From NCBI RefSeq assembly GCF_000219625.1, contig NC_018209.1, positions 1,550,001 through 1,614,000 of the forward strand: a stretch of DNA of 64,000 nt, written 5' to 3'. This DNA is from Zymoseptoria tritici IPO323 (Eukaryota; Ascomycota; Dothideomycetes; Mycosphaerellales; Mycosphaerellaceae). The notes beneath the pieces were generated by a model. That model made no database searches. It was not told the DNA's origin and was given only the letters and a program-made list of their open reading frames with translations. This document shows positions 28,690 through 44,456 of the stretch, in pieces (the first letter of the stretch is position 1; the number at the start of each line of letters is the position of its first letter). A program made the translations under genes and the position numbers.

Positions 28690-30080
28690 GACGGCGACCC
28701 TACGAGCGACTACGAGCGCTAGCCTACCCCTCCTAGCTCCGGTACTCGCGAAGGCATATATATTCCGTAGAGCCGTACGAACACTAAGATAAAGAAGGCG
28801 GCTAAGACGAAGGCCCGTAAGTTACCTAACGCTGCCGCTAACTTATTAAAGGAGGCTAAGAAGGCTAAGCGTTTAAGGGAGCTATTAGCTAATAATAAGA
28901 GTACGATGGGCGGTGCCTAGGATAATAAGGATAAGCTACTACTACTATTTACTACTAAGTGCTTCCTTTATACCGTTACCCTTATAGATCCGGAGCCTCC
29001 TATAGACGGCGAGGACGCTAATAATAATACAACGCCGGTCTACTCCGATAAACGTAATAAGATCTTATAGTAAGCTTAAGGCGTTATTGCCGAGATAGAT
29101 ACTATTCTCTAAAACGCTTAGAGGCACGACCGTAGAAGGCTCTTCTTAGAGTATCTAATAAACGAGAGCGTAGCTACGAAGTAGCGGCGAGATAAGAGGC
29201 CCTACTACGACATCTATTTAACGAAGGAGTATAGTAGGAATTAGCCTATTAAGCTCGGCGCTAATAACGTAGCCGCTACGAACACTACGATTAGGATAAT
29301 ATAGCTGTTTAATCTAAAGATAACCGGTAAGGCTCCCTTAGCGACCGTTCGGATTACTTACGTTATCGCCTCTAGCGGCTAGAAGAATTACGACGATAGC
29401 TAGGTATATATAGACTTAAAACGCTCCGTAAAGAAGGACGGCGAGCCTATATTTCAGTATATAATTAGCTACAACGTAGAGACCGATAGCACTATCCTAC
29501 ACCCTAACGGGCGTATATTTAAGGACAAGGACAGCGTTATTTACTATCCGTTTATATAGACTAATAGCTACACTAGCGTCGATGGTAGGGAGATCCTCGT
29601 AGGTAAGAGTTACCTACTCGTAAGCTAGCTCGTACCGGAGGCTCGCTACCTTATAATAGCTATAGTAGGTCCGTCCGGTAGTAACATTAAGGCGCTCGTA
29701 GATTAGTCTATAGGGCTCGTAAGCCGTTCTCGTATAGCTCGCACTACCCTTAGCTCCTCGTAGGATCTAGAGCGCTCTAGCCCTCTACCTTAGTAGTAAC
29801 GCTCTAGCTCTAAACGCCCTACTAGCCGCGACCTCTAATTATCGCCGGTAAGCTAGCCTAACGACTATATTCTACTCGACCCTAATACGGACAGCTTAGA
29901 CGATATAGTAAGGGCCAAGGAAGCTACCGCGAACCGAGCTAAGGAGAACAGTACATCTTCGACGATTTCCTCCGTAGTAGCTAGTACGCTAGCGCTAGCG
30001 ATCCGTTCGGACTCGACGATGCCCTCTTCGTTAGCGACAACGACGATGCTAACGCCTTAGTTAAAGTCGAAGGCGAAGGA
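28690..30080 (+). pseudogene. Unknown second reading frame of the DDE element, broken
   Basis: Downstream of the transposase core a plus frame gives a basic stretch (NTKIKKAAKTKARKLPNAAA, then LKEAKKAKRLRELL) and then, from about 29,080, a longer readable part. That part includes RRRLFLEYLINESVATK, LTKEYSRN, LFNLKITGKAPLATVRITY, VYIDLKRSVKKDGEPIF and REILVGKSYLLVS. Stops sit mainly at likely Trp/Gln positions. It could be an accessory protein of the element or the former neighbour gene. I recognise no family. Confidence 0.4.
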
Positions 30081-30089
30081 GCCTAGTAG

Positions 30090-30291
<202 letters not shown>

Positions 30292-30337
30292 GCCGCTACT
30301 ACTATTAATTAAGGGGGTTTAGAGATACTAGAGGAGG

Positions 30338-30350
30338 TCGCCGAGCCGGT
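30338..30350. repeat. Target-site duplication, left copy (minus LINE)
   Basis: TCGCCGAGCCGGT, exactly repeated at 34,292-34,304. It brackets the minus-strand LINE with its nested plus-strand copy. Confidence 0.8.
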
Positions 30351-30352
30351 TT

Positions 30353-31863
30353 TGTTTGTTTGTTTGTTTGTTCCATTTACGTCCTGTATAAGTCTATGAC
30401 TATGTAGGACGGCTGTCTCGCGACAGCAGTCTATCTATGTACAATCGTTGTTCTCTCGTATCTCTTGACCTTAGGGAAAGACCCGTACCTAGGATAGTAG
30501 CAAGCTAGTATCGAAGGACTTTAAAGAAAGACAAATAAGGAAAAGTAAAAGGAGTGTAGGCTAGACGGTCTCGTCTTCGCCTCTTGCTAGGTGCCAGGAC
30601 CTAGAAGCAATCTTTGTATCCGAGAGAAAGGTAGTAAGGTGTTTCCGGAGTTCCTTATCTTCTACTATTTCTAGCAGAGATTGTGCTTGTCGTAGCGGTA
30701 GTGGCCTAAATACATCGTAGATAGGGCAGCTACATACGAGGTGTTCTGCTGTTTCTCGTCGTCCGCAAGGGCAGTCTGGCGTCGTTGCGTGTCCAAAGCG
30801 ATAGAGATAGGACTTTAGGTATCCGTGTCCTAATAGGATAGTATAGAAGGCACTAGTTAAAGCACGTCTTCCTCCTATTCTATGTTTTCCTGGCGAGCTC
30901 CATAGAAATCGACTAAGGTAGCTATTTGTATTCCTAGGTACCTTATTGATCTCCCGTTGTCTTGCTATTTCGTATCGGGTTTTCCAGACGCTAAAGAGAT
31001 CGTCTTTTGCGTAGTTAGCCCTCTCGTGTTCTACGAAATGCTTGTATTGTCGGAGTCGATAATAGAGTAGTTGTATCTGTGTTCTCTGTCGTTTTTGCGG
31101 AAGTATCTCTCTCGAGTCCTCGTGTTGGACTTCTCGCGTGTCCGAAGGCGCGCTTTGGATAGCGAGTCTTACGGGGTAGTTTTCGGGTAGCTTTGCTGCG
31201 CGTAGAGAGTATAAAATTGACTGTCTCTCTAGGCGTAGATCCGGGGGGAAGAGATTTGACTCTACTTCGGACGGGACGTTTGGGGCGGTACGGAAAACGC
31301 CTAGGATCTTCCTACAAGCTTTACTTTGTAGAGATACTAGAGGTTTTATGCTCTTTTTCGACCGCTACCAAACCGGGGCCCCGTAGTCTGCTATTGTAGT
31401 AACGCAGGCTAGGTAGATCTTTCTTAACGATATAGAAGACAGACCGCGTTCGGTATTTGCTAGTCTTTCTAATCGATAGAATGCCGCTTGTGCTTGAGCC
31501 GATCTTATTACAATGTGCTCCTTAAAGGTAAGACCGGCGTCTAGCCAAATCCCAAGCCACCTTATCGCTTTCTTTGCCGGGCGAACAATATCGCCGTTTA
31601 GAAGAATTACCGGGCAATCGGACCCTTTCCCTTTTGAGAAGTATACTAGGTCTGTCTTTGCTAGGTCGAAAGCAATCGAGTTCTTCTTTCCTAGGTCTAT
31701 TAGCCTTCTTGCCTTACGTTCTAGTACCTTAGAGTTCTTCTTAAGGGACGTAGACGAGGTAGATAGTCTAATATCGTCGACGTAGGAACTAGGAGTAACT
31801 CCTTATAGCGAGAAGAATATGTCGCGCGTATAGATTAGAAAGAGGATAGGAGACATCGGGCTG
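30353..31863. repeat. Inverted-repeat arm, left
   Basis: Pairs with 32,662-34,172: a position x on the left matches 64,525 minus x on the right. By protein comparison of two blocks the arms differ at only a few residues (six in about 158), so they are nearly identical. The 798-bp spacer (31,864-32,661) belongs to the longer minus-strand LINE copy. Confidence 0.9.
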
Positions 31864-32661: not shown

Positions 32662-34184
32662 CAGCCCGATGTCTCCTATCCTCTTTCTTATCTATACGCG
32701 CGACATATTCTTCTCGCTACAAGGAGTTACTCCTAGTTCCTACGTCGACGACATTAGACTATCTACCTCGTCTACGTCCCTTAAGAAGAACTCTAAGGTA
32801 CTAGAACGTGAGGCAAGAAGGCTAATAGACCTAGGAAAGAAGAACTCGATTGCTTTCGACCTAGCAAAGACAGACCTAGTACACTTCTCGAAAGGGAAAG
32901 GGTCCGATTGCCCGGTAATTCTTCCAAACGGCGATATTGTTCGCCCGGCAAAGAAAGCGATAAGGTAGCTTGGGATTTGGCTAGACGCCGGTCTTACCTT
33001 TAAGGAGCACATTGCAATAAGATCGGCTTAAGCACAAGCGGCATTCTATCGATTAGAAAGACTAGCAAATACCGAACGCGGTCTGTCTTCTATATCGTTA
33101 AGAAAGATCTACCTAGCCTGCGTTACTACAATAGCAGACTACGGGGCCCCAGTTTGGTGGCGGTCGAAAAAGAGCATAAAACCTCTAGTATCTCTACAAA
33201 GTAAAGCTTGTAGGAAGATCCTAGGCGTTTTCCGTACCGCCCCAAACGTCCCGTCCGAAGTAGAGTCAAATCTCTTCCCCCCGGATCTACGCCTAGAGAG
33301 ACAGTCAATTTTATACTCTCTACGCGCAGCAAAGCTACCCGAAAACCACCCCGTAAGACTCGCTATCTAAAGCGCGCCTTCGGATACGCGAGAAGTCTAA
33401 CACGAGGACTCGAGAGAGATACTTCCGCAAAAACGACAGAGAACACAGATACAACTACTCTGTTATCGACTCCGACAATACAAGCATTTCGTAGAACACG
33501 AGAGGGCTAACTACGCAAAAGACGATCTCTTTAGCGTCTGGAAAACCCGATACGAAATAGCAAGACAACGGGAGATTAATAAGGTACCTAGGAATACAAA
33601 TAGCTACCTTAGTCGATTTCTATGGAGCTCGCCAGGAAAACATAGAATAGGAGGAAGACGCGCTTTAACTAGTGCCTTCTATACTATCCTATTAGGACAC
33701 GGATACCTAAAGTCCTATCTCTGTCGCTTTGGACACGCAACGACGCCAGACTGCCCTTGCGGACGACGAGAAACAGCAGAACACCTCGTATGTAGCTGCC
33801 CTATCTACGATGTATTTAGGCCACTACCGCTACGACAAGCACAATCTCTGCTAGAAATAGTAGAAGACAAGGAACTCCGGAAACACCTTACTACCTTTCT
33901 CTCGGATACAAAGATTGCTTCTAGGTCCTGGCACCTAGCAAGAGGCGAAGACGAGACCGTCTAGCCTACACTCCTTTTACTTTTCCTTATTTGTCTTTCT
34001 TTAAAGTCCTTCGATACTAGCTGGCTACTATCCTAGGCACGGGTCTTTCCCTAAGGTCAAGAGATACGAGAGAACAACGATTGTACATAGATAGACTGCT
34101 GTCGCGAGACAGCCGTCCTACATAGTCATAGACTCCTACAGGACGTAAATGGAACAAACAAACAAACAAAACAACAAACAACAA
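32662..34184 (+). mobile_element. 5'-truncated LINE, plus strand, nested head-to-head in the minus copy
   Basis: It starts abruptly inside the RT domain (open frame 32,669-32,968 with YVDD at 32,741-32,752). After a single TAG it continues through the RT thumb and C-terminal zinc motif to a stop at about 33,963, then a 3' UTR and a CAAA-type tail (34,152-34,184). I could not find a target duplication for this inner copy. Between the two halves of the minus copy about 9-15 nt of coding sequence seem to be missing, so a small deletion may have accompanied insertion. Confidence 0.8.
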
Positions 34185-34291
34185 AGATAGATTTCGAGTC
34201 TTCTTTTTCGAGGAAAGCGTTCCAGTGGTTCTTCTTAGCTGTTTTAATAGCTTGGAAGTACTCGTTTCTCGCTTCCGTATACGCCTCTTTT

Positions 34292-34304
34292 TCGCCGAGC
34301 CGGT
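34292..34304. repeat. Target-site duplication, right copy (minus LINE)
   Basis: An exact copy of 30,338-30,350, directly beyond the truncated 5' end of the minus LINE. Confidence 0.8.
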
Positions 34305-34740
34305 CGTTTAGTAGTAGAAGATAAAGAAGAAGAAGAAGAAGGTTAACGAGCCGGTAGCTATTAGTACTAGACGGAGCGAGCGGACTATTAAGCTTACCGA
34401 GAAGGGTAGGGCTAACTAGAAGGACTAATATATACGAATCTAATAAATATACGCTACCGACGACTCGCTCGTTGCGTACTCGCGGACTAAACGGACTGGC
34501 TCGTAGCTAGAAGGAGCAATAAACGTATATCTTATATCTTAATAGCTTAATATCTTAATTCTCTTCCTTAAAAACGGCTCGCGGCGTACTCGTAGGCCAA
34601 AACGGCTAGCTCGTAAGCGTAAAAACGAGGGATTTAAGGAGATATATAGTAACTAACGCATTTATTTAGGTATTAACATATAGGCTCGTAAGGCTTGCGG
34701 AGAGCTCGTAGGCTAAATCGATCTATCTATTAATCTATTA
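34305..34740. other. Continuation of the DDE-element host sequence
   Basis: Continues what stood left of 30,338 before the LINE inserted. It has a GAA-rich purine stretch (34,320-34,343) and repeated CTCGTA/CTCGCGG motifs like those near 27,120-27,240. No gene can be supported. Confidence 0.4.
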
Positions 34741-35560
34741 CGCCTAGTCTACCGAACTTCTCGTTAATAGTACGCTAATACTATAACACCGACTACTTAA
34801 TCTTAGTAATAGTAGCCTTTAACTTGCTCCGTACGTTATTAACCTCGTCTATAATCTCCTTAATTAGCTCCTCCTTTAGCTAACCTTTTATGCCCTTTAA
34901 ACCGCTAATCTTATACTTTAAACCGCTAATCTTACGCTTTAAATCCGATACCTCCGACTCTAACGTAGCGATCTTATCCTACGCCTTATTTATCTTACCT
35001 CGCATACTACTAACTACCTCCTTTAATATAGACTTCTTTTCTACCGGCTCCTCCTTAATCTTTACCTACTCTCTAGTAAAACACGGAGGCTTACCCTTAT
35101 AGTAGTAGTAGGCGTAGGTAGCGGAAGTCTTAGAAGTCTTATAGACGAGCTTACGAGTCGAGTACTAGTAGCACTCGGTAACCGCCGGAATGCCTATTAT
35201 TTAATATTAGCCTACGAGCCTTACTACGTACCTTACGAGCTATATTACCTTCGTCCGTCTCTATAACTCTACGTACATAATCGTATCTTATAAGTATCTA
35301 ACGTCCGCTCTTCTTTACATTGCGGTCTACGCTCTATGCTCTAAGGATAGTATCGTTCTATTAGAGGTCGGAGATGTACTAGAAGTCTCTAGAGGTAGCC
35401 GTAGTAGGCTTAGTATAGACGAGGAGGTCGGTAGGTAGCTAAGGAGTAGGAGCGATAGCTAAAGTAGATACGGTCGCTAGCTTAGAGTCGCTACCGTCGT
35501 CGGAGAGAGAGGAGAGTAAGGAGTCTTCGAGAGAGAGAGTCCGCGTAGGCGGTCGGGGTC
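34740..35560 (-). pseudogene. Coiled-coil protein remnant, minus strand
   Basis: Read on the minus strand. After scattered frames near 35.2-35.5 kb (YDYVRRVIETDEGNIARKV) and YSTRKLVYKTSKTSATYAYY, one frame stays open from about 35,105 to 34,785. It contains KKSILKEVVSSMRGKINKAW and two tandem heptad-like blocks (LKRKISGLKYKISGLKGIK), then KEELIKEIIDEVNNVRSKL. This looks like a coiled coil. Frame changes upstream suggest introns or indels. No family recognised. It may be part of the DDE element or an older neighbour. Confidence 0.4.
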
Positions 35561-35639
35561 GCGAGCCTTACTAAGTTCCGTATTAAGTGCCGTAAAACTA
35601 GCTATTATACGCGCGAGGGTGCGATATTGCGAGCTATAT

Positions 35640-35880
35640 ATATTGTGTAACGAGCGAGCTACGAGCGCGCGCGGTAGAGTAGTAGAAGTAGTAGTATTAA
35701 TAAGAGGTTTAAGAGTCGAAGAAAATAATACTTATCTAAGTAAACGGCGTATTAGCGCGCACTTATATATAATTGTTAATAATTAGAGTAACTAGCGCAG
35801 CTATATAGCGACAATACGAGCGATTGGCGACAATGGCGGCGGTGGTAGTGGTAGTGGTTGTTATTGTAAGAAATGAGAAT
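35640..35880. other. Compartment border: end of RIP-type sequence
   Basis: Up to about 35,820 the sequence has the TA-rich mutated look. After a short GGC/GGT/AGT microsatellite-like stretch (35,838-35,868) it changes within tens of bases to ordinary, CA/TG-containing, gene-like DNA. Confidence 0.7.
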
Positions 35881-35968
35881 TGAGGTAGTGACCTAAATGT
35901 CACTATGGGCCGCGATCTGAGCGGTGCCGCCATTTACCCGCGCCACTCGAGCTGAAGCCGAAACAGAA

Positions 35969-35977
35969 CATAAATAC
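35969..35977 (+). promoter_or_regulatory. TATA-like element upstream of the first small secreted peptide gene
   Basis: CATAAATAC lies about 90 bp before the ATG at 36,061, a plausible core-promoter position. It is followed by a CA-rich leader (CACAACATCACTACCAC). Confidence 0.4.
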
Positions 35978-36060
35978 CGCCTGACCGGCTCCTCCTGTTC
36001 CACTTCTTGTTCAACACAAAAGATCCAGAAACACAACATCACTACCACAAGTCCCGAAAG

Positions 36061-36341
36061 ATGAAATTCACCACCTTTCTCGCGGTCGCCTTGATGGGCC
36101 TTGTCTCTACCGCGCTCGCTGTATGCTCTTGTCGTTCATCATCGCGCGATGACACACACTAACGCCTGCTCGAAGGGCTGTCAACACGACTGGGACTGCC
36201 ACGGAAGTTGCGGCAGCGCTGGCCAGCAAGCCTGGTGAGCTCTTCCCTCGTCTGACTTCCCTTAAGAATGTCGAGCGTGTGCTAATGCGACACACTGACA
36301 GCTTCCGCGGCGTATGCAAATGCCCACGGCCTCCTCAGTAA
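36061..36341 (+). CDS. Secreted six-cysteine defensin/knottin-like peptide (52 aa)
   Basis: Three exons: 36,061-36,120, 36,176-36,234 and 36,302-36,341. Intron 1 (55 nt, phase 0) is GTATGC...CACTAAC...AAG. Intron 2 (67 nt) is GTGAGC...GCTAATG...CAG and splits a Cys codon TG|C. Exon 1 codes exactly 20 residues, a signal peptide (MKFTTFLAVALMGLVSTALA). The mature part is about 32 residues with six Cys spaced C-x5-C-x3-C-x7-C-x4-C-x-C. The CxxxC...CxC layout is that of cysteine-stabilised alpha-beta (CS-alpha-beta) defensins. Unspliced, the frame stops early, so simple ORF callers miss the gene. Possible roles are antimicrobial peptide or effector, by inference only. It lies about 200 bp from the transposon border. 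Confidence 0.75.
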
Positions 36342-37510
36342 TGCCCGCTCCTCTCGAGCCTGGCTACACTGCGCCTTTGCGGGAACAAGATGAAATTCAG
36401 TGTTGTTTGGTGGGAGATGGAGATGGAGATGGGATGGTCCGAGGCAGACAGAGTCCTGAATGTATTGAGTGAATCCTCATATACTGCGACAATCAACTTA
36501 AATGCTTGCAAACAGTTGACGATAGGTCAGAGGCACCCATTTCTTCGTAGCGGATGTTGATGCGAGGTTCCAAAGTCAAACATCGTCACCAATATAGGAC
36601 CGTGTCATTCGAACTCCTCAAAGGTCGGATGTCGCCTCGAGCCTGATGCTGAGCCGTGGACTGGTCGACAGTCTCGTCATGGTTTTGCAGGGTTCGTCCT
36701 GGCTGGAGACAGTGCCGCGCCCGATGCACTCCTCTCGCGAGGGGTCCTGGACCGTCAGATCAATGTTGTCATCAGATGAACCTGTCCTGATCGAGGAGGT
36801 TGATCCTCATCGTTTGACTGCTTGCATCCATCATTGATCGCCCTCTTCTCAATACCTACCGCGAATGTGGAAACATCGTGGAGATGTCATCTGTTTTCTT
36901 GTCTCGATGCCTCATAGCATTGCCTGAAAAGACGTCACCTTCCAGGATGAGACCGGATGATGCTCACCGTCAGCTTCCGGCCACTCCCTGCACTGTATCC
37001 AAGCAGCGACACCGAGGGCGCAAGTTTCTCCTCCACTTCAAGGGACCATTCGTCGTTCCCGAGAGTAAGAGTGTTTGACTTGAGCATCGACAGCCAACCG
37101 TGCGGACTCTGGACCCAAAGCAAGTGGTCGAGCGCGCTCCCGAAGGACGAGACCGATGGCGCCGGGAGTCCGGAATGATGCAAAATCCGCGTCAAACATC
37201 ATCGATCCCATGCGCGTAAGCACTACTTGCCCAATGCAGTAGTCCGCGGGATGTGGAGTTCTCCACACATCCGGCGGGAGGGATCTCGTGGGGTGAGCGG
37301 AGCGATACAAAGATGACTTGCTCGCTGGAGAGTTTCCTATTCCTCCCCCTTTTCATTCGTCGTCGAACTCCAACACACAACACTCGACTTTTCGACAAAC
37401 ATCGTCTCATTTCGGCATCACCACTTCCCGAACTCTGTCGCAAGAGAGCAATTGGCGACATCCTCACTTCCAAACAGCACCACAAGTGTCAAGACCCAAG
37501 CACGACAATC
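36342..37510. other. Intergenic region between the two small peptide genes
   Basis: About 1.17 kb of ordinary composition with several short overlapping frames on both strands and none with family resemblance, signal peptide or good splice pattern. I see no gene here. It should contain the promoter of the second peptide gene. No clear TATA box seen. Confidence 0.5.
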
Positions 37511-37817
37511 ATGAACATCCAAGCCCTGATCGCCGTCATCTTCGTCGGTCTCCTCGCGCCCATGGCCACGGTATATCCTTCTTTCCATCCTTCACGACTT
37601 TTCCTTCTTATCGCTGACGACTCGGCTTTCAATAGGCATGCAGGACACCGTCTGAATGCTCTTGCTCCCACCACGGCGGTGATCCCATCTGGTGTGTGCC
37701 CATGCTCTTCCACTCCCTCGCTTGCTCACCATGACCTGAATGTTGGATGTACTGACTGTCCGTGCGTTTTGCAGCGTCAACAGACAGTGCCAATGCACGG
37801 GTCATATAGGCCGGTAA
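37511..37817 (+). CDS. Secreted six-cysteine knottin-like peptide (52 aa), paralogue-like
   Basis: Three exons: 37,511-37,570, 37,636-37,691 and 37,775-37,817. Intron 1 (65 nt, phase 0) is GTATAT...CTGACG...TAG. Intron 2 (83 nt) is GTGTGT...ACTGAC...CAG and again splits a Cys codon TG|C. Exon 1 encodes a 20-residue signal peptide (MNIQALIAVIFVGLLAPMAT). The mature 32 residues carry six Cys at C-x5-C-x-C-x8-C-x4-C-x-C. Total length, exon-1 length, both intron phases, the first x5 and the final x4-C-x-C match the gene at 36,061, so the two look like old tandem duplicates although residues between cysteines have diverged. The second-third Cys spacing (CxC) departs from the CS-alpha-beta rule, so the fold is open. 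Confidence 0.75.
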
Positions 37818-38240
37818 AAATCTTCCCGATCTCGCTGCCGGGATGGTTGGGACTTTGCTGCGGGTGCGGACGGGAGGAGAGGAGGCAGCTTCAAGAGTGT
37901 CATGGCGGAGAATCCAGCTCGGACATTTTTCGCGTCTTGTGAATGGGAGGGAAGTGGTGTACGCGAGTCGGGAGACGCATTCTGGACTTCGCGTGGTGCC
38001 GGAGAAATTCAGAGAAAGCCACGTAGCGATGTAGATCATTTCTGCTCAATGATGTCTGCATTTCAATCCATCTCTCATTGTCGTCACGCCCGTGCGATGC
38101 TCCTTTTGCTTCCACGGGTCGCTTGACGTCGTGAATTCATCGGACGGGCAGGATTACTTCCAATGGCTGCCCGCAAACTTCATTCGCCGTATACCTCAAA
38201 CTCTGCATCCGAAATCCGCACCATCTGAACCTCTCCACCA
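37818..38240. other. Intergenic; nothing recognised
   Basis: Overlapping short frames on both strands without family resemblance. It contains the 3' flank of the second peptide gene. Confidence 0.5.
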
Positions 38241-38241
38241 G

Positions 38242-38857
38242 TCACCCCGCGACATTCAGATACGCCTGGCTTCGCTCCTTGGACATGGCCAGCGCTTGGT
38301 ACGCTGTCGTCAGCGGGAACATCTTCGAGCCTGGGCCGTAGAGCCGGAACTCATCACGCAGCAGAGAAGGGACGCTTTTCAGGACCTGAATACAGAGAGC
38401 GATTGAAGCTTCTGTGGGAAGGTTGGAGATGCTGTTAGCTCCGCTGGATCGGATTGTGGTCCAGGAGAAGATGTATATTGATGCGAAGGTCTTGGACCTC
38501 GAGAAGGCAGACGAGCTTGAAGACCCAGGGATGAAGCAAGGTGTTTGCGACGGAGACGTCCAGAAGCCATAGATATGCGCCGTCGCAGGCGTCCGGTCCA
38601 TCGTCTGTGACTAAACAGTCCGAGAAGTCCGAGAAGCAGTCTGCCCGCGAGCTCTGGAATCATTGGTGGGGCATGCGGTGACTGTCGGCCAGCCGTCCGA
38701 TCGTGCTTTTGACGGCGTTCGCATCGGCCAGCGCGAGGCCGTGTCGCGCATCGTCGAGTTCAGCCAGGATTGACGGGATCCCGCCGGCCAAATTGAGGAG
38801 ACGCTGCATTGAAGATGCTCGTTCGTTCGGAGAATGGCTTGGTCTTCCGGTCATCAT
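38242..38857 (-). pseudogene. C-terminal remnant of a fungal transcription-factor-like gene
   Basis: On the minus strand three short frames join into something like the C-terminal middle-homology region of Zn2Cys6 regulators: LLNLAGGIPSILAEL, then YLWLLDVSVANTLLHPWVFK with LVCLLEVQDLRINI, then ASIALCIQVLKSVPSLL and RLYGPGSKMFPLTTAYQAL. Successive pieces are in different frames with no convincing introns, and no Zn2Cys6 DNA-binding motif is present upstream. This is most simply a decayed gene. The family call rests on the general pattern (helical stretch, GP...FPL..AY block) and is moderate at best. Confidence 0.4.
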
Positions 38858-39127
38858 GCGCGAGGAATGTCGGCTTTCGTGATGCGAAAGCTTGCAAAAC
38901 TAATATTGATTGGTCATCAAATATGAAGCAGTCAGCCATTGCGCAGCTCGTGTATCAAAAGCGGTCGTAAACAAACGAACACCTTGTGTCGAGGGTTCGA
39001 AGCATAAGACTCCGGAGACGAGAGCTGGACCAGTCTGATGAGGCCATCGGAATGATGCAACCAGTCGATACCCTCGTGCGGCATGACCGCCTGGGAGTCG
39101 GTCAGCAGCAAGGCATGTCCGATGGCA
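38858..39127. other. Intergenic; nothing recognised
   Basis: No frame with family resemblance. Composition resembles the flanking gene remnants. Confidence 0.4.
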
Positions 39128-39445
39128 AGAAATTGACAACAGTGAGCTTGTTGGTCTGGCACGCTATTGGCAGAAATGGCATTGGCAGTGCCAATGCCAA
39201 TTGGCATTAAACAACAATATTGTTAGCTGGCATGGCATAGAGGTCCGGAGCCAGACTAATGCCAGAAGGTGCCAGACAATGCCAGACAAAACCGGATATC
39301 GGCTGCGTATTCTGTCTTTCGACTGCATAAAACCTGGAAACGGACTAGAATGTAGGCGCATATCGCTAGCGGCTGCTTGTTGGCAGTATCTAGCATGCCA
39401 GACAGTGCCATTGGCATGCTACTCTGTGCTATTGGCATGGCATGA
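39128..39445. repeat. Dense TGGCA/TGCCA cluster
   Basis: About 19 TGGCA or TGCCA pentamers lie within about 320 bp on both strands, including the near-palindrome ATTGGCAGTGCCAAT and tandem TGCCAGACAA units. Far above chance by eye. It could be a decayed foldback or MITE-like repeat, or a protein-binding array. Confidence 0.6.
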
Positions 39446-39582
39446 AATCGAGCCCCAAACCAAGCCAAGCCAAACCAACAAGCTCACTGATTGACAATGC
39501 GGGAACCAGTCATTGTCCTGCAAGCCAGCATCCACGAGTCCTGATACCCACCACAACTACCGTGTTCACATATTTCACCAAC

Positions 39583-39861
39583 ATGCCTCAATCCTTCCGC
39601 CAAACAACGGGAGCTCGACCTTCCACCGCCACACCCTCCGACTCCGTCCTGATCATCATCGGCGCCTGGAACGAGTACACGGAAGGTGCATTGAATGGCA
39701 CCGATGCTGCCAACCCACACAAAGCAACGGCGTCCTTGCTCAACAGATACCGCGAGGCCAACGGCCAGATCGTGCACGTTGACCACCAAATTCCCAATAG
39801 AGCTCCGGTCTCCACGCCCGGCCCTCGTCTGGCGGAGGCACTCGAAGCTTTGGCTGCCTAA
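39583..39861 (+). pseudogene. C-terminal fragment of an AWNEYTEG-containing hydrolase-like protein
   Basis: A frame ending at 39,861 has SVLIIIGAWNEYTEG, reminiscent of the conserved AWNEW-type motif near the end of GH99-like carbohydrate-acting proteins, followed by a helical tail (LLNRYREANGQIV) and a stop. Nothing upstream continues the domain, so at most this is a leftover 3' end. The family assignment is weak. Confidence 0.25.
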
Positions 39862-39898
39862 GGGTAGCGAGAAGGTGGTTAAGTAGAAGCATCCTTAT

Positions 39899-40222
39899 TT
39901 GCTTGCAAATACCAATTCGCCTGAGGATTTGAAGTCGATTGATGCGAAGACGGTCGTGCTGGTGGGATACAGGCCGATCAGATCGTGCTGCTGGACAACG
40001 CTTCTGACACGGAAGTCAGGCCCCGCATGCGTGTCCACCACCGCTCGTGACGCTGTCCGCTTTAGGCATGACACCATCATTGTGGTGAAGGACTGCGTTG
40101 GCGATCGAGCCATCCCAAAAGCCAGCAGAGCGGAGGTTAGTCAGGTTACCAAGATGGCAATGCATAACTTGATTTGCTTTGCGACCATCGTGCAGAGCTC
40201 GGAGATCAACCAGCATGTGTAG
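39899..40222 (+). pseudogene. Isochorismatase-like cysteine hydrolase, C-terminal remnant
   Basis: Pieces in two frames, QIVLLDNASDTEVRPRMRVH then RDAVRFRHDTIIVVKDCVGD followed by RAIPKASRAEV and FATIVQSSEI, resemble the C-terminal half of fungal isochorismatase-fold hydrolases (VVVKDAVGDR-type block, then FATI). A frame change near 40,045 and an early TGA break it. The upstream catalytic Asp/Lys/Cys region is absent or unrecognisable, so a decayed gene is the likely reading. Confidence 0.35.
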
Positions 40223-41253: not shown

Positions 41254-42213
41254 ATGACCCGCTCCGCTCTCATCGCCGCCGCCATTGCCGGCGCGTGGAC
41301 CATCACACCGACGCTCGCCGTCCCGCCCGAGGACTTTGGCTTCCCTTCCGCACCGAACGACACGATCCTCGACGTCTCCTTCCGCCAAACACTCAGCGGA
41401 TACGAAGACGTCGTGCCAGGAAGCCGCTACGGTATCGCCATCGCCGAGAATGAGCCCAATCTCAGTCTCAACACCACCGCCTACCCTCGACTGGACTCGT
41501 ACCAAGGCGAATACATCGTCATCATGGTCGATCCGGATGCCTCATACCCGGAGAATCCCTCCAACCGCTTCATTCTGCACTGGCTGCGACAAAATCTCAG
41601 CTCAGCAGAGAACGCCAATCCTCCACCAGCTGGTCTGCAAATTGTCACCGACACGGCGAAGTTACTAAACAGCTTCACACCCGCAATAGTCCAATATCGC
41701 CGTCCTTCGCCACCGACCAACTCCTCCGCTCATCGCTACATCTTGTACGCATTCGAGCAGCCACAGCACTTCCGCCTGCCAGAGCAGTGGTCCGGCTTGA
41801 GCGGCAGCAACCGCACGGGATTCAACCTGACGTCGTTCATCAGCGACACAAACCTGGGAATGCCATGCGCGGCAAACTACTTCTACACTTCCAACCAGAC
41901 TGTTGTACCTGATGACTTTGTCTCTACCAATGGCTCTTCCTACCCAGGTGGTGATGGCACGGCGATCACTTCCGGCGATCCACATGGTCCTGGCTCCTCT
42001 GCTCCAAACAACACCCACAGCGCCAACTCGACCATGCCGACTCGCATGCCGAATGCGACAACAAGTGGTGGTGCTGGACCATCGCCGACCTCATCTCCGA
42101 CGACATCTGCGGAACCTTCCTCGACCTCGGCCTCCACTGGTGGAACAGCCATGTTGACCGGCGCCGGAAGTCTTGTCGCCGCAGGCCTCGTCGGACTCGC
42201 CGCTTTGCTTTGA
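41254..42213 (+). CDS. Secreted, probably GPI-anchored PEBP-family protein (319 aa)
   Basis: Intronless. A signal peptide covers about residues 1-22 (ALIAAAIAGAWTITPTLA). The PEBP fold signatures are MVDPDASYPENPSNRFILHW at about 91-110 and HRYILYAFEQP at about 160-170, corresponding to the DPD...LHW and GxHRY...Q sites that form the phosphate/lipid-binding pocket. Many NxS/T sequons suggest glycosylation. Residues from about 215 on are Ser/Thr/Pro/Gly-rich (wall-protein-like), and the last about 22 residues are hydrophobic with small residues upstream, as for GPI attachment. Likely acts at the plasma membrane or wall. The ligand is unknown. The start has a good context (CCGCCATGACC). Confidence 0.88.
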   Translation: MTRSALIAAAIAGAWTITPTLAVPPEDFGFPSAPNDTILDVSFRQTLSGYEDVVPGSRYGIAIAENEPNLSLNTTAYPRLDSYQGEYIVIMVDPDASYPENPSNRFILHWLRQNLSSAENANPPPAGLQIVTDTAKLLNSFTPAIVQYRRPSPPTNSSAHRYILYAFEQPQHFRLPEQWSGLSGSNRTGFNLTSFISDTNLGMPCAANYFYTSNQTVVPDDFVSTNGSSYPGGDGTAITSGDPHGPGSSAPNNTHSANSTMPTRMPNATTSGGAGPSPTSSPTTSAEPSSTSASTGGTAMLTGAGSLVAAGLVGLAALL

Positions 42214-42992: not shown

Positions 42993-44456
42993 ATGAAGAC
43001 CTCACTTCGGGCCAACGTCGGGATTCTCTCACTCCTCTGCATTCCAGCAGTCCTCGCCGACAACAACACACCTCAAACCGTCGACGTCGCAATAGTAGGC
43101 GGCGGCCTCTCCGGTCTCGCCGCCGCCAAAGTCCTCCTCGATGCCGGCAAAACTTTCACAATCCTCGAAGCCCGCGACCGTGTCGGCGGCAGAGTCCAAA
43201 ACCAAGACCTCAAAAACGGCGGCGTCACCGAACTCGGCGCCGCATTCGTCGGCCCAACCCAAGACCGCGTGCTCGCCCTCGCCGCCTCCCTGAATCTTAC
43301 TCTCATCCCCGAATATAATGCCGGCGACGTCGTCGCAGTCTTCGCCAACTCCACTTTGAAATACTCCACCGCGAGCCCGATCCCGCCGATCGACGACGAA
43401 TCGTCCAAACTGCTGCTGCAAACTATCGCATTTCTTGAGACGACTGCTGGGACGATTAATACCACCGCGCCGTGGACGCATCCTAATGCGACGGTCTGGG
43501 ATAGTCAGACGGTTGCCACTTTTTTCGATGGGCAGAGTCATCCTGTTGGTACCGTGCGCCGTTCGCTGTTGGATGTGTCGATTACGAGTATTTTCTCTGC
43601 TGAATCGGCTGAACTTTCTCTCTTCTACGCTCTTTCCTACATTGCGTCCGCAGGAAACGCTACCACACCGGGCTCCTTCATCCGCCTCATCTCCGTCGAC
43701 AATGGAGCGCAACAAGCCCGCATCACAGGCGGCACTGCCCTTCTCGCTACCGGCCTGGCCAGTCAAGTCGGCTTATCCAACATCCAACTCAACTCCCCCG
43801 TCCGCTCCATCGCCCAGCAACCAGACGGCACCTACCTCCTCACCACCACCTCCGGCTGCACCACTTCCGCCCGCAAAGTCATAGTAGCCATGTCCCCCCC
43901 TCTCGCCTCCCGCATCGAATACACCCCTCCCCTCCCGGCTTCCCGCGACCAACTCACTCAACGCATGTTCATGGGTTCCCTCGCCAAAGCCACCGCCATC
44001 TACTCCACTCCTTTCTGGCGGGCTTCCAATATTTCCGGCCAAGCCCTCTCTGACTTTGGAACTGTGCGAGCGACGTACGACGTCAGTCCGGCGGATGGGT
44101 CGTATGGCGCGATCTTAGGATTCGTCGAAGCAGATCGTGCTCGGGCTATTGACGACTTGACCGATGAGGAAATTACTAAATTAGTTGTTGAAGACTATGT
44201 GAGGTACTTTGGAGAGCAGGCTAGAGAGGTGAAGGAGTGGGTTGTGAAGAGGTGGGATAATGAGGTGTTCTCGAGGGGCGGACCGGTTGCGTTGGCTGGG
44301 GTGGGGACGTTGAGCAGGTATGGTCCTGCGTTGAGGGAGAGTGTGGGAGGGGTGTTTTGGGCGGGGACGGAGGCGAGTGAGTTTTGGGTGGGGTATATGG
44401 ATGGGGCGTTGAGGAGTGGGGAGAGGGCGGCGGGGGAGGTTTTGGGGGCGTTGTGA
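42993..44456 (+). CDS. Secreted flavin-containing amine oxidase (487 aa)
   Basis: Intronless. An N-terminal signal peptide (residues 1-22, ending AVLA) is followed by the FAD-binding Rossmann motif VAIVGGGLSGLAAAKVLL (about 32-49), an ILEARDRVGGRV block (57-68) and GAAFVGPTQDRVLAL. The C-terminal FAD-binding region is present (GVFWAGTEASEFWVGYMDGA then RSGERAA), the pattern of the monoamine/polyamine oxidase family, which oxidises amines to aldehydes or imines with H2O2 release. Length is usual for the family. No flavin-linking Cys is evident near the C-terminus, so FAD is probably non-covalent. The signal peptide suggests extracellular or vacuolar amine use. The substrate cannot be told. Confidence 0.92.
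   Translation: MKTSLRANVGILSLLCIPAVLADNNTPQTVDVAIVGGGLSGLAAAKVLLDAGKTFTILEARDRVGGRVQNQDLKNGGVTELGAAFVGPTQDRVLALAASLNLTLIPEYNAGDVVAVFANSTLKYSTASPIPPIDDESSKLLLQTIAFLETTAGTINTTAPWTHPNATVWDSQTVATFFDGQSHPVGTVRRSLLDVSITSIFSAESAELSLFYALSYIASAGNATTPGSFIRLISVDNGAQQARITGGTALLATGLASQVGLSNIQLNSPVRSIAQQPDGTYLLTTTSGCTTSARKVIVAMSPPLASRIEYTPPLPASRDQLTQRMFMGSLAKATAIYSTPFWRASNISGQALSDFGTVRATYDVSPADGSYGAILGFVEADRARAIDDLTDEEITKLVVEDYVRYFGEQAREVKEWVVKRWDNEVFSRGGPVALAGVGTLSRYGPALRESVGGVFWAGTEASEFWVGYMDGALRSGERAAGEVLGAL

What the first reader, a model, noticed from the sequence alone, without database searches (positions are those of the whole stretch)
36061..37817. Two 52-aa six-cysteine secreted peptide genes with the same three-exon design at the transposon border
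Seen: both have a 60-nt first exon encoding only the signal peptide, a phase-0 first intron, a second intron splitting a Cys codon TG|C, 52 residues in total, and C-x5-C ... C-x4-C-x-C. The first fits the CS-alpha-beta defensin spacing (C-x5-C-x3-C-x7-C-x4-C-x-C); the second has CxC instead of CxxxC. Known: fungal and invertebrate defensins use the CxxxC/CxC pair. Inference: an undescribed defensin/knottin-like family, diversified next to RIP-prone repeats, acting as antimicrobials or effectors. Unspliced frames stop early, so automatic annotation probably misses both.
Basis: partly seen in the sequence, partly recalled or inferred. Interest (0 to 1): 0.85.

Follow-up and report, generated by a model that had tools for sequence, protein, structure and literature searches.

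The report
Tandem defensin-like peptide genes in Zymoseptoria
Two tiny spliced genes side by side in a wheat leaf-blotch fungus encode secreted, cysteine-bridged peptides of a defensin-like family described in this fungus in 2017, so the genes look real but the family is not new.

Summary
Both genes have the stated three exons; gene 1 encodes C-x5-C-x3-C-x7-C-x4-C-x-C, gene 2 C-x5-C-x1-C-x8-C-x4-C-x-C, 52 aa each. A splice-aware scan finds only these two models in the window and none in 60 shuffles. All four introns carry a CTRAY branch motif 12-18 nt before the acceptor; 97 of 3477 background AG sites have one at 10-20 nt. The 'undescribed family' reading fails: the window is Zymoseptoria tritici IPO323 chromosome 10 (lengths match exactly), and a 2017 paper (PMC5234102) describes Zytrisins and lambda-Zytrisins from this genome with the same phase-0 intron ending the signal peptide and phase-2 intron in the Cys4 codon. 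Gene 1 is a typical Zytrisin by framework. Gene 2 is lambda-like, but its one-residue Cys2-Cys3 gap lies outside the published 2-9, so it is probably unlisted. Listing could not be checked (supplement not readable). A RIP-marked repeat ends about 140 bp upstream of gene 1. Function is unknown; the one member the paper assayed, Zytrisin-1, showed no antimicrobial activity.

The parts
36061..36120 (+). gene 1 exon 1: hydrophobic signal-peptide exon, 20 codons
36121..36175 (+). gene 1 intron 1, phase 0, GTATGC...CTAAC-12 nt-end, acceptor AAG
36176..36234 (+). gene 1 exon 2: Cys1-x5-Cys2-x3-Cys3-x7 and TG of the Cys4 codon
36235..36301 (+). gene 1 intron 2, phase 2 in the Cys4 codon, GTGAGC...CTAAT-15 nt-end, acceptor CAG
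36302..36341 (+). gene 1 exon 3: C of Cys4, x4-Cys5-x-Cys6, stop
37511..37570 (+). gene 2 exon 1: hydrophobic signal-peptide exon, 20 codons
37571..37635 (+). gene 2 intron 1, phase 0, GTATAT...CTGAC-17 nt-end, acceptor TAG
37636..37691 (+). gene 2 exon 2: Cys1-x5-Cys2-x1-Cys3-x8 and TG of the Cys4 codon
37692..37774 (+). gene 2 intron 2, phase 2 in the Cys4 codon, GTGTGT...CTGAC-18 nt-end, acceptor CAG
37775..37817 (+). gene 2 exon 3: C of Cys4, x4-Cys5-x-Cys6, stop
34292..35918. dispersed repeat copy with RIP signature, ending about 140 bp upstream of gene 1; 36 of the 45 other matches lie in this stretch (a lower bound: 40 of 565 candidates were scored)

Best explanation
An intact tandem pair of genes of the Zymoseptoria fungal defensin-like superfamily. 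Gene 1 is a typical Zytrisin by cysteine framework; gene 2 is a lambda-Zytrisin-type paralogue with a Cys2-Cys3 gap of one residue. Shown here: gene architecture, six cysteines, hydrophobic leader exon, non-chance status. Inferred: transcription and splicing, removal of the leader, and three disulfides. Inferred further: gene 1 folds as a small CS-alpha-beta peptide, while gene 2 cannot span an alpha-helix with Cys-x-Cys and so folds differently. Most likely mode of action (inferred, about 50%): a stable secreted peptide that binds one particular surface target in the wheat apoplast, of host or of a competing microbe, rather than a broad membrane-killing antibiotic.
For: Same genome as the published family: 39,686,251 bp and chromosome 10 of 1,682,575 bp, and a neighbouring ORF 98% identical to a Z. 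tritici protein. Same two intron positions and phases as stated for the Zytrisins and lambda-Zytrisins, which the paper reports as transcribed with introns confirmed, pseudogenes excepted. Both gene models open and intact. Specific scan: 2 real models, 0 in 60 and 0 in 200 shuffles. Branch motifs in 4 of 4 introns. [quoted passage not shown] For a narrow rather than broad action: Zytrisin-1 was inactive on the strains tested and members vary strongly outside the cysteines.
Against: The two proteins share no detectable local similarity, so their homology rests on gene design. Gene 1 lacks the Gly at -2 of Cys4 that most CS-alpha-beta peptides have (Gln there). No Pfam family passes its cut-off and PDB sequence matches are weak. 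Both peptides have an Arg in the Cys4-Cys5 loop and three K/R against two D/E, unlike Zytrisin-1 whose c-loop lacks a basic residue, so antimicrobial action is not excluded. No expression data were at hand for these two loci. The 10-20 nt branch window and the spacing ranges were set after the genes had been seen.
Confidence: 0.85

Rival explanations
1. The two genes converged on similar three-exon designs and belong to different secreted-peptide families.
For: No local alignment between the two proteins; different Cys2-Cys3 and Cys3-Cys4 spacing; 5' regions no more alike than chance: 175 of 2000 random draws score as high (draws closer than 300 bp were skipped but stay in the 2000).
Against: Identical phase-0 position at the end of a 20-codon leader, identical phase-2 split of the Cys4 codon, same length, 1.2 kb apart on the same strand; the published family shows this design with high variability outside the cysteines.
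Confidence: 0.07
2. Secreted antimicrobial peptides used against competing microbes on the leaf (a rival on function, compatible with family membership).
For: Defensin-type framework in gene 1; Arg in the Cys4-Cys5 loop and net +1 (His not counted) in both; a Verticillium effector with a defensin-like fold has antifungal activity (PMC11328434 passages) and VdAMP3 is classed as a CS-alpha-beta defensin (PMC9438471 passages).
Against: Zytrisin-1 inhibited none of the strains tested, and the authors suggest that most Zymoseptoria members might have lost antimicrobial activity.
Confidence: 0.3
3. Gene 2 is really a single-exon gene, 143 aa from its ATG at 37511 or 209 aa from 37313, read without splicing.
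For: The unspliced frame is open from 37313 to 37942.
Against: Splicing alone gives a leader exon plus six framework cysteines with the same two junctions as gene 1; branch motif in both introns; such a spliced model is absent from the shuffles.
Confidence: 0.04
4. Chance or pseudogene: no functional genes here.
For: No annotated homologue found; close to a RIP-affected repeat.
Against: 0 models in 60 and in 200 shuffles; no stops and no RIP signature in the genes.
Confidence: 0.03

Closest known systems
Zytrisins (typical fungal defensin-like peptides of Zymoseptoria tritici; PMC5234102)
   Same: Same genome, six-cysteine precursor with leader, phase-0 intron at the end of the signal peptide, phase-2 intron in the Cys4 codon, Cys2-x3-Cys3 and Cys5-x-Cys6: gene 1 fits these.
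   Different: Gene 1 is not Zytrisin-1 (reduced mass 3419.81 against 3629.03 Da) and lacks Gly at -2 of Cys4; whether it is one of the other 28 could not be checked.
lambda-Zytrisins (atypical members, PMC5234102)
   Same: Same gene design with an altered Cys2-Cys3 gap, and no Gly at -2 of Cys4 (the paper ties the fold change to loss of that Gly): gene 2.
   Different: Published Cys2-Cys3 gaps are two to nine residues; gene 2 has one.
CS-alpha-beta defensins of other fungi and of invertebrates (micasin, plectasin and relatives)
   Same: Gene 1: Cys[1]..Cys[2]x3Cys[3]..Cys[4]..Cys[5]x1Cys[6].
   Different: The two-intron fungal defensin genes described in the passages read of PMC4165938 have intron phases 0 and 2 as here, but the first lies in the helix region and the second in the c-loop; no sequence match over a Pfam cut-off.
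Legume nodule cysteine-rich peptides (Pfam Nodulin_late, PDB 7th8)
   Same: Gene 1: similar cysteine spacing, weak score.
   Different: E 0.0038 and 18 bits against a 30.4-bit cut-off; E 0.27 in the PDB, no better than an unrelated RNase at 0.28; plant proteins; most likely similarity of spacing only.

Membership tests
Zytrisin (gene 1) | Phase-0 intron at the end of the signal peptide | tested here: met
   (intron 36121-36175)
Zytrisin (gene 1) | Phase-2 intron interrupting the Cys4 codon | tested here: met
   (intron 36235-36301)
Zytrisin (gene 1) | Cys2-x3-Cys3 and Cys5-x1-Cys6 | tested here: met
Zytrisin (gene 1) | Listed among the 29 published genes | not testable with these tools
lambda-Zytrisin (gene 2) | Same two intron positions and phases | tested here: met
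   (introns 37571-37635, 37692-37774)
lambda-Zytrisin (gene 2) | Six cysteines with altered Cys2-Cys3 or Cys5-Cys6 gap | tested here: met
   (Cys2-x1-Cys3)
lambda-Zytrisin (gene 2) | Cys2-Cys3 gap within the published two to nine residues (a published observation, not a stated requirement) | tested here: not met
   gap of one against the text
CS-alpha-beta defensin (gene 1) | Cys framework C..Cx3C..C..CxC | tested here: met
CS-alpha-beta defensin (gene 1) | Gly at -2 of Cys4 (usual, not universal) | tested here: not met
   Gln at -2
CS-alpha-beta defensin (gene 1) | Helix-sheet fold with 1-4, 2-5, 3-6 disulfides | not testable with these tools
CS-alpha-beta defensin (gene 2) | Cys2-x3-Cys3 | tested here: not met
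   Cys2-x1-Cys3
CS-alpha-beta defensin (both) | Sequence match to a curated family over its cut-off | tested here: not met
Knottin (both) | Knotted disulfide pattern 1-4, 2-5, 3-6 with the third bridge threading the ring (recalled) | not testable with these tools
   no structure could be predicted or measured
Secreted protein | N-terminal signal peptide | tested here: inconclusive
   hydrophobic leader (best 8-residue mean 2.64 and 3.45); no signal-peptide predictor available

The most novel reading that the evidence does not exclude
Gene 2 represents an unlisted subclass of the lambda-Zytrisins in which a Cys-x-Cys replaces the helix motif, giving two Cys-x-Cys motifs in one peptide. It would have arisen beside its typical neighbour by loss of residues between Cys2 and Cys3, and would thus be a caught-in-place step in which a defensin scaffold is turned into another disulfide fold while the gene design stays frozen.
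Probability: 0.35. Interest if true: 0.5.

Novelty: new member of a known kind. Interest (0 to 1): 0.3.

Why it matters
The pair puts a typical framework and an extreme atypical one 1.2 kb apart, in one gene design, in a well-studied wheat pathogen. That makes it a compact test case for how a disulfide fold changes within a family, and a reminder that very small, multi-exon secreted peptides can escape protein collections. It is not a new family: the superfamily was published in 2017 from genomes that include this isolate.

Tried and rejected
Protein searches with both 52-aa products found no candidate. The neighbouring PEBP-like ORF, used as a control, found a 98% identical Z. tritici protein, so the collection holds this species; it is one control, of a longer protein. 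Exon-level searches of the whole genome with each protein returned only the genes' own three exons. DNA search with 35900-37900 returned only itself. Pfam Nodulin_late was tried across the genome: no match, and no control genome rang, so it says nothing. Similarity of the two 5' regions was tested and rejected (175 of 2000 random draws as good, near draws skipped). Terminal inverted repeats or a target-site duplication of the upstream repeat were sought; best 8 of 12 matching and 4 bases, nothing convincing. PDB matches of gene 1 (NCR13 0.27, but also two ribonucleases at 0.28 and 4.9 and a viral-type protease at 1.2) and of gene 2 (four scorpion potassium-channel toxin chains at 0.82-1.6, but also unrelated proteins at 0.92 and 9.3) were not taken as homology. 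The first pattern search (3481 forward and 3275 reverse matches, 2811 and 2735 for the reversed pattern) was too unspecific to use. Papers: 'zytrisin' gives one paper; papers holding both title phrases of the 2017 paper: 5 including itself, the other four seen as a listing; Zymoseptoria tritici with defensin-like: 13, of which besides the 2017 paper two were read as passages. Searches were read as listings; from them PMC4165938 and PMC4502367 (not used) were read as passages.

Full report
WHERE IT IS. The window is contig 10, bases 1,550,001-1,614,000, of a 39,686,251-bp genome in 21 contigs, and contig 10 is 1,682,575 bp long. Both lengths equal those printed for Zymoseptoria tritici (Mycosphaerella graminicola) IPO323 and its chromosome 10 in PMC3111534 (passages, and the section with Table 1, read). 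The nearby ORF 41254-42213 is 98% identical to a Z. tritici ST99CH_1E4 protein.

OBSERVATION. Gene 1: exons 36061-36120, 36176-36234, 36302-36341. Gene 2: exons 37511-37570, 37636-37691, 37775-37817. Each gives 52 aa. Intron 1 is phase 0 after a 60-nt leader exon; intron 2 is phase 2 and splits the fourth cysteine codon.

CHANCE. A scan for leader exon, two introns and a six-cysteine framework, with ranges set to include both genes, finds exactly these two models on both strands of the window, and none in 60 dinucleotide-preserving shuffles. A looser scan finds the same two and no other in the last 282,575 bp of the chromosome. With those looser settings, 200 shuffles of a 96,656-bp segment (38.7 Mb counting both strands) give none. 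Each of the four introns has a CTRAY ending 12-18 nt before its end, against 97 of 3477 background AG sites with one at 10-20 nt. Ranges and window were chosen after I had seen the genes, so the product of probabilities printed is optimistic.

SURROUNDINGS. A dispersed repeat runs from about 34292 to 35918. A search with window 34000-36000 gave 46 matches in the genome, itself included (40 of 565 candidates scored, so a lower bound). Of the other 45, 36 lie in 34292-35922 and 24 end at 35917-35922 in window coordinates; nine match only the first 186 bases of the query, a different element. The composite RIP index is +1.08 to +2.73 in the six 500-bp bins from 33000 to 36000 and -0.80 to -1.58 in the eight bins from 36000 to 40000; it is -0.67 and -1.04 in the two genes. 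So the repeat ends about 140 bp before gene 1's start codon and the genes themselves are not RIP-marked. A TATA-like ATAAATA at 35970 lies in the unique stretch (seen, not tested). No further family member was found by the scan nearby and no DNA-level duplicate by the genome search.

WHAT IT IS. Wu, Gao and Zhu 2017 (PMC5234102; abstract, introduction, methods, results and discussion read; passages; figures and supplements not seen) searched three Z. tritici isolates, IPO323 among them. They report 29 typical fungal defensin-like peptide genes (Zytrisins) and 19 atypical ones (lambda-Zytrisins) over the three. [quoted passage not shown] that lambda members have a Cys2-Cys3 gap of two to nine residues, or two residues between Cys5 and Cys6; that RNA-seq of IPO323 confirmed the two introns and transcription except for pseudogenes; and that some typical and atypical genes are adjacent. 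This is the design seen here. Gene 1 meets the typical framework. Gene 2 meets the gene design and has an altered Cys2-Cys3 gap, but of one residue, outside the stated range; both cysteines lie in one exon. By that statement gene 2 is probably not among the 19. Whether gene 1 is among the 29 could not be checked; it is not Zytrisin-1, whose reduced mass is 3629.03 Da against 3419.81 (gene 1) and 3413.81 (gene 2) for the 32-residue products.

RELATION OF THE TWO. The proteins show no local alignment (24% identity in a forced alignment) and their 5' regions are no more alike than random draws. Homology is inferred from the identical intron positions and phases, length and tandem position, the argument that the 2017 paper uses to join typical and atypical members.

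HOW IT LIKELY WORKS. Shown: open reading frames, hydrophobic leader, six cysteines. Inferred: secretion, leader removal, three disulfides. Gene 1 probably takes the CS-alpha-beta fold, with a reservation: it has Gln, not Gly, at -2 of Cys4, a position that is Gly in the majority of such peptides. Gene 2, with Cys-x-Cys where the helix would have to span two cysteines, cannot take that fold unchanged (the distance argument is). Zytrisin-1 was refolded and had a CS-alpha-beta-like CD spectrum but did not inhibit the strains tested, which the authors tie to the lack of a basic residue in its c-loop. Both peptides here carry an Arg between Cys4 and Cys5 and have three K/R against two D/E, so an antimicrobial role is not excluded. 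I put about 50% on a narrow-target secreted peptide acting in the apoplast and 30% on antimicrobial use; nothing here tests either.

CLOSEST SEQUENCE MATCHES. Pfam: gene 1 to Nodulin_late, E 0.0038, 18 bits against a cut-off of 30.4, and EB module, E 0.038, 14.5 against 24.3; gene 2 none. PDB: gene 1 to nodule peptide NCR13, E 0.27, next to an unrelated RNase at 0.28; gene 2 to four scorpion potassium-channel toxin chains, E 0.82-1.6, among unrelated proteins; in the alignments printed for two of the four its Cys2-Cys3 gap is two residues shorter. These are similarities of cysteine spacing, not evidence of membership.

ANNOTATION. No candidate for either protein in a collection of 5.8 billion proteins, while the control found Z. 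tritici. The search looks only at proteins of 0.55-1.75 times the query length and needs three shared five-residue words, so a wrongly modelled longer gene 2 or a strongly diverged allele would not have been seen.

VERDICT. A correct and sharp observation of what look like real genes; an already described family; gene 2 probably an unlisted, unusually spaced member.

Noticed in passing
window 30355-31863 and 32662-34170: A 1509-nt inverted repeat, arms 98% complementary, 798 nt apart, left of the dispersed repeat. Its right end, window 34000-34185, has nine other matches in the genome, seven at 97-99% and two at 83% and 76% identity.
   Followed up: partly
window 30032-30346: Tandem array with a unit of mostly 9 nt.
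   Followed up: no
window 34292-35918: Dispersed RIP-marked repeat with copies on many chromosomes; no clear terminal inverted repeat or target-site duplication found.
   Followed up: partly
window 41254-42213: Phosphatidylethanolamine-binding-protein-like ORF, 319 aa, Pfam PF01161 on its relatives.
   Followed up: partly
window 42993-44456: 487-aa ORF that starts like a secreted protein and looks like a flavin amine oxidase (reading, motif recalled, not searched).
   Followed up: no
PMC5234102, Table 1: The paper's text says more than 70% of the peptides are negative or neutral, while the table note calls the percentages ratios of positively charged peptides; the two do not agree.
   Followed up: no
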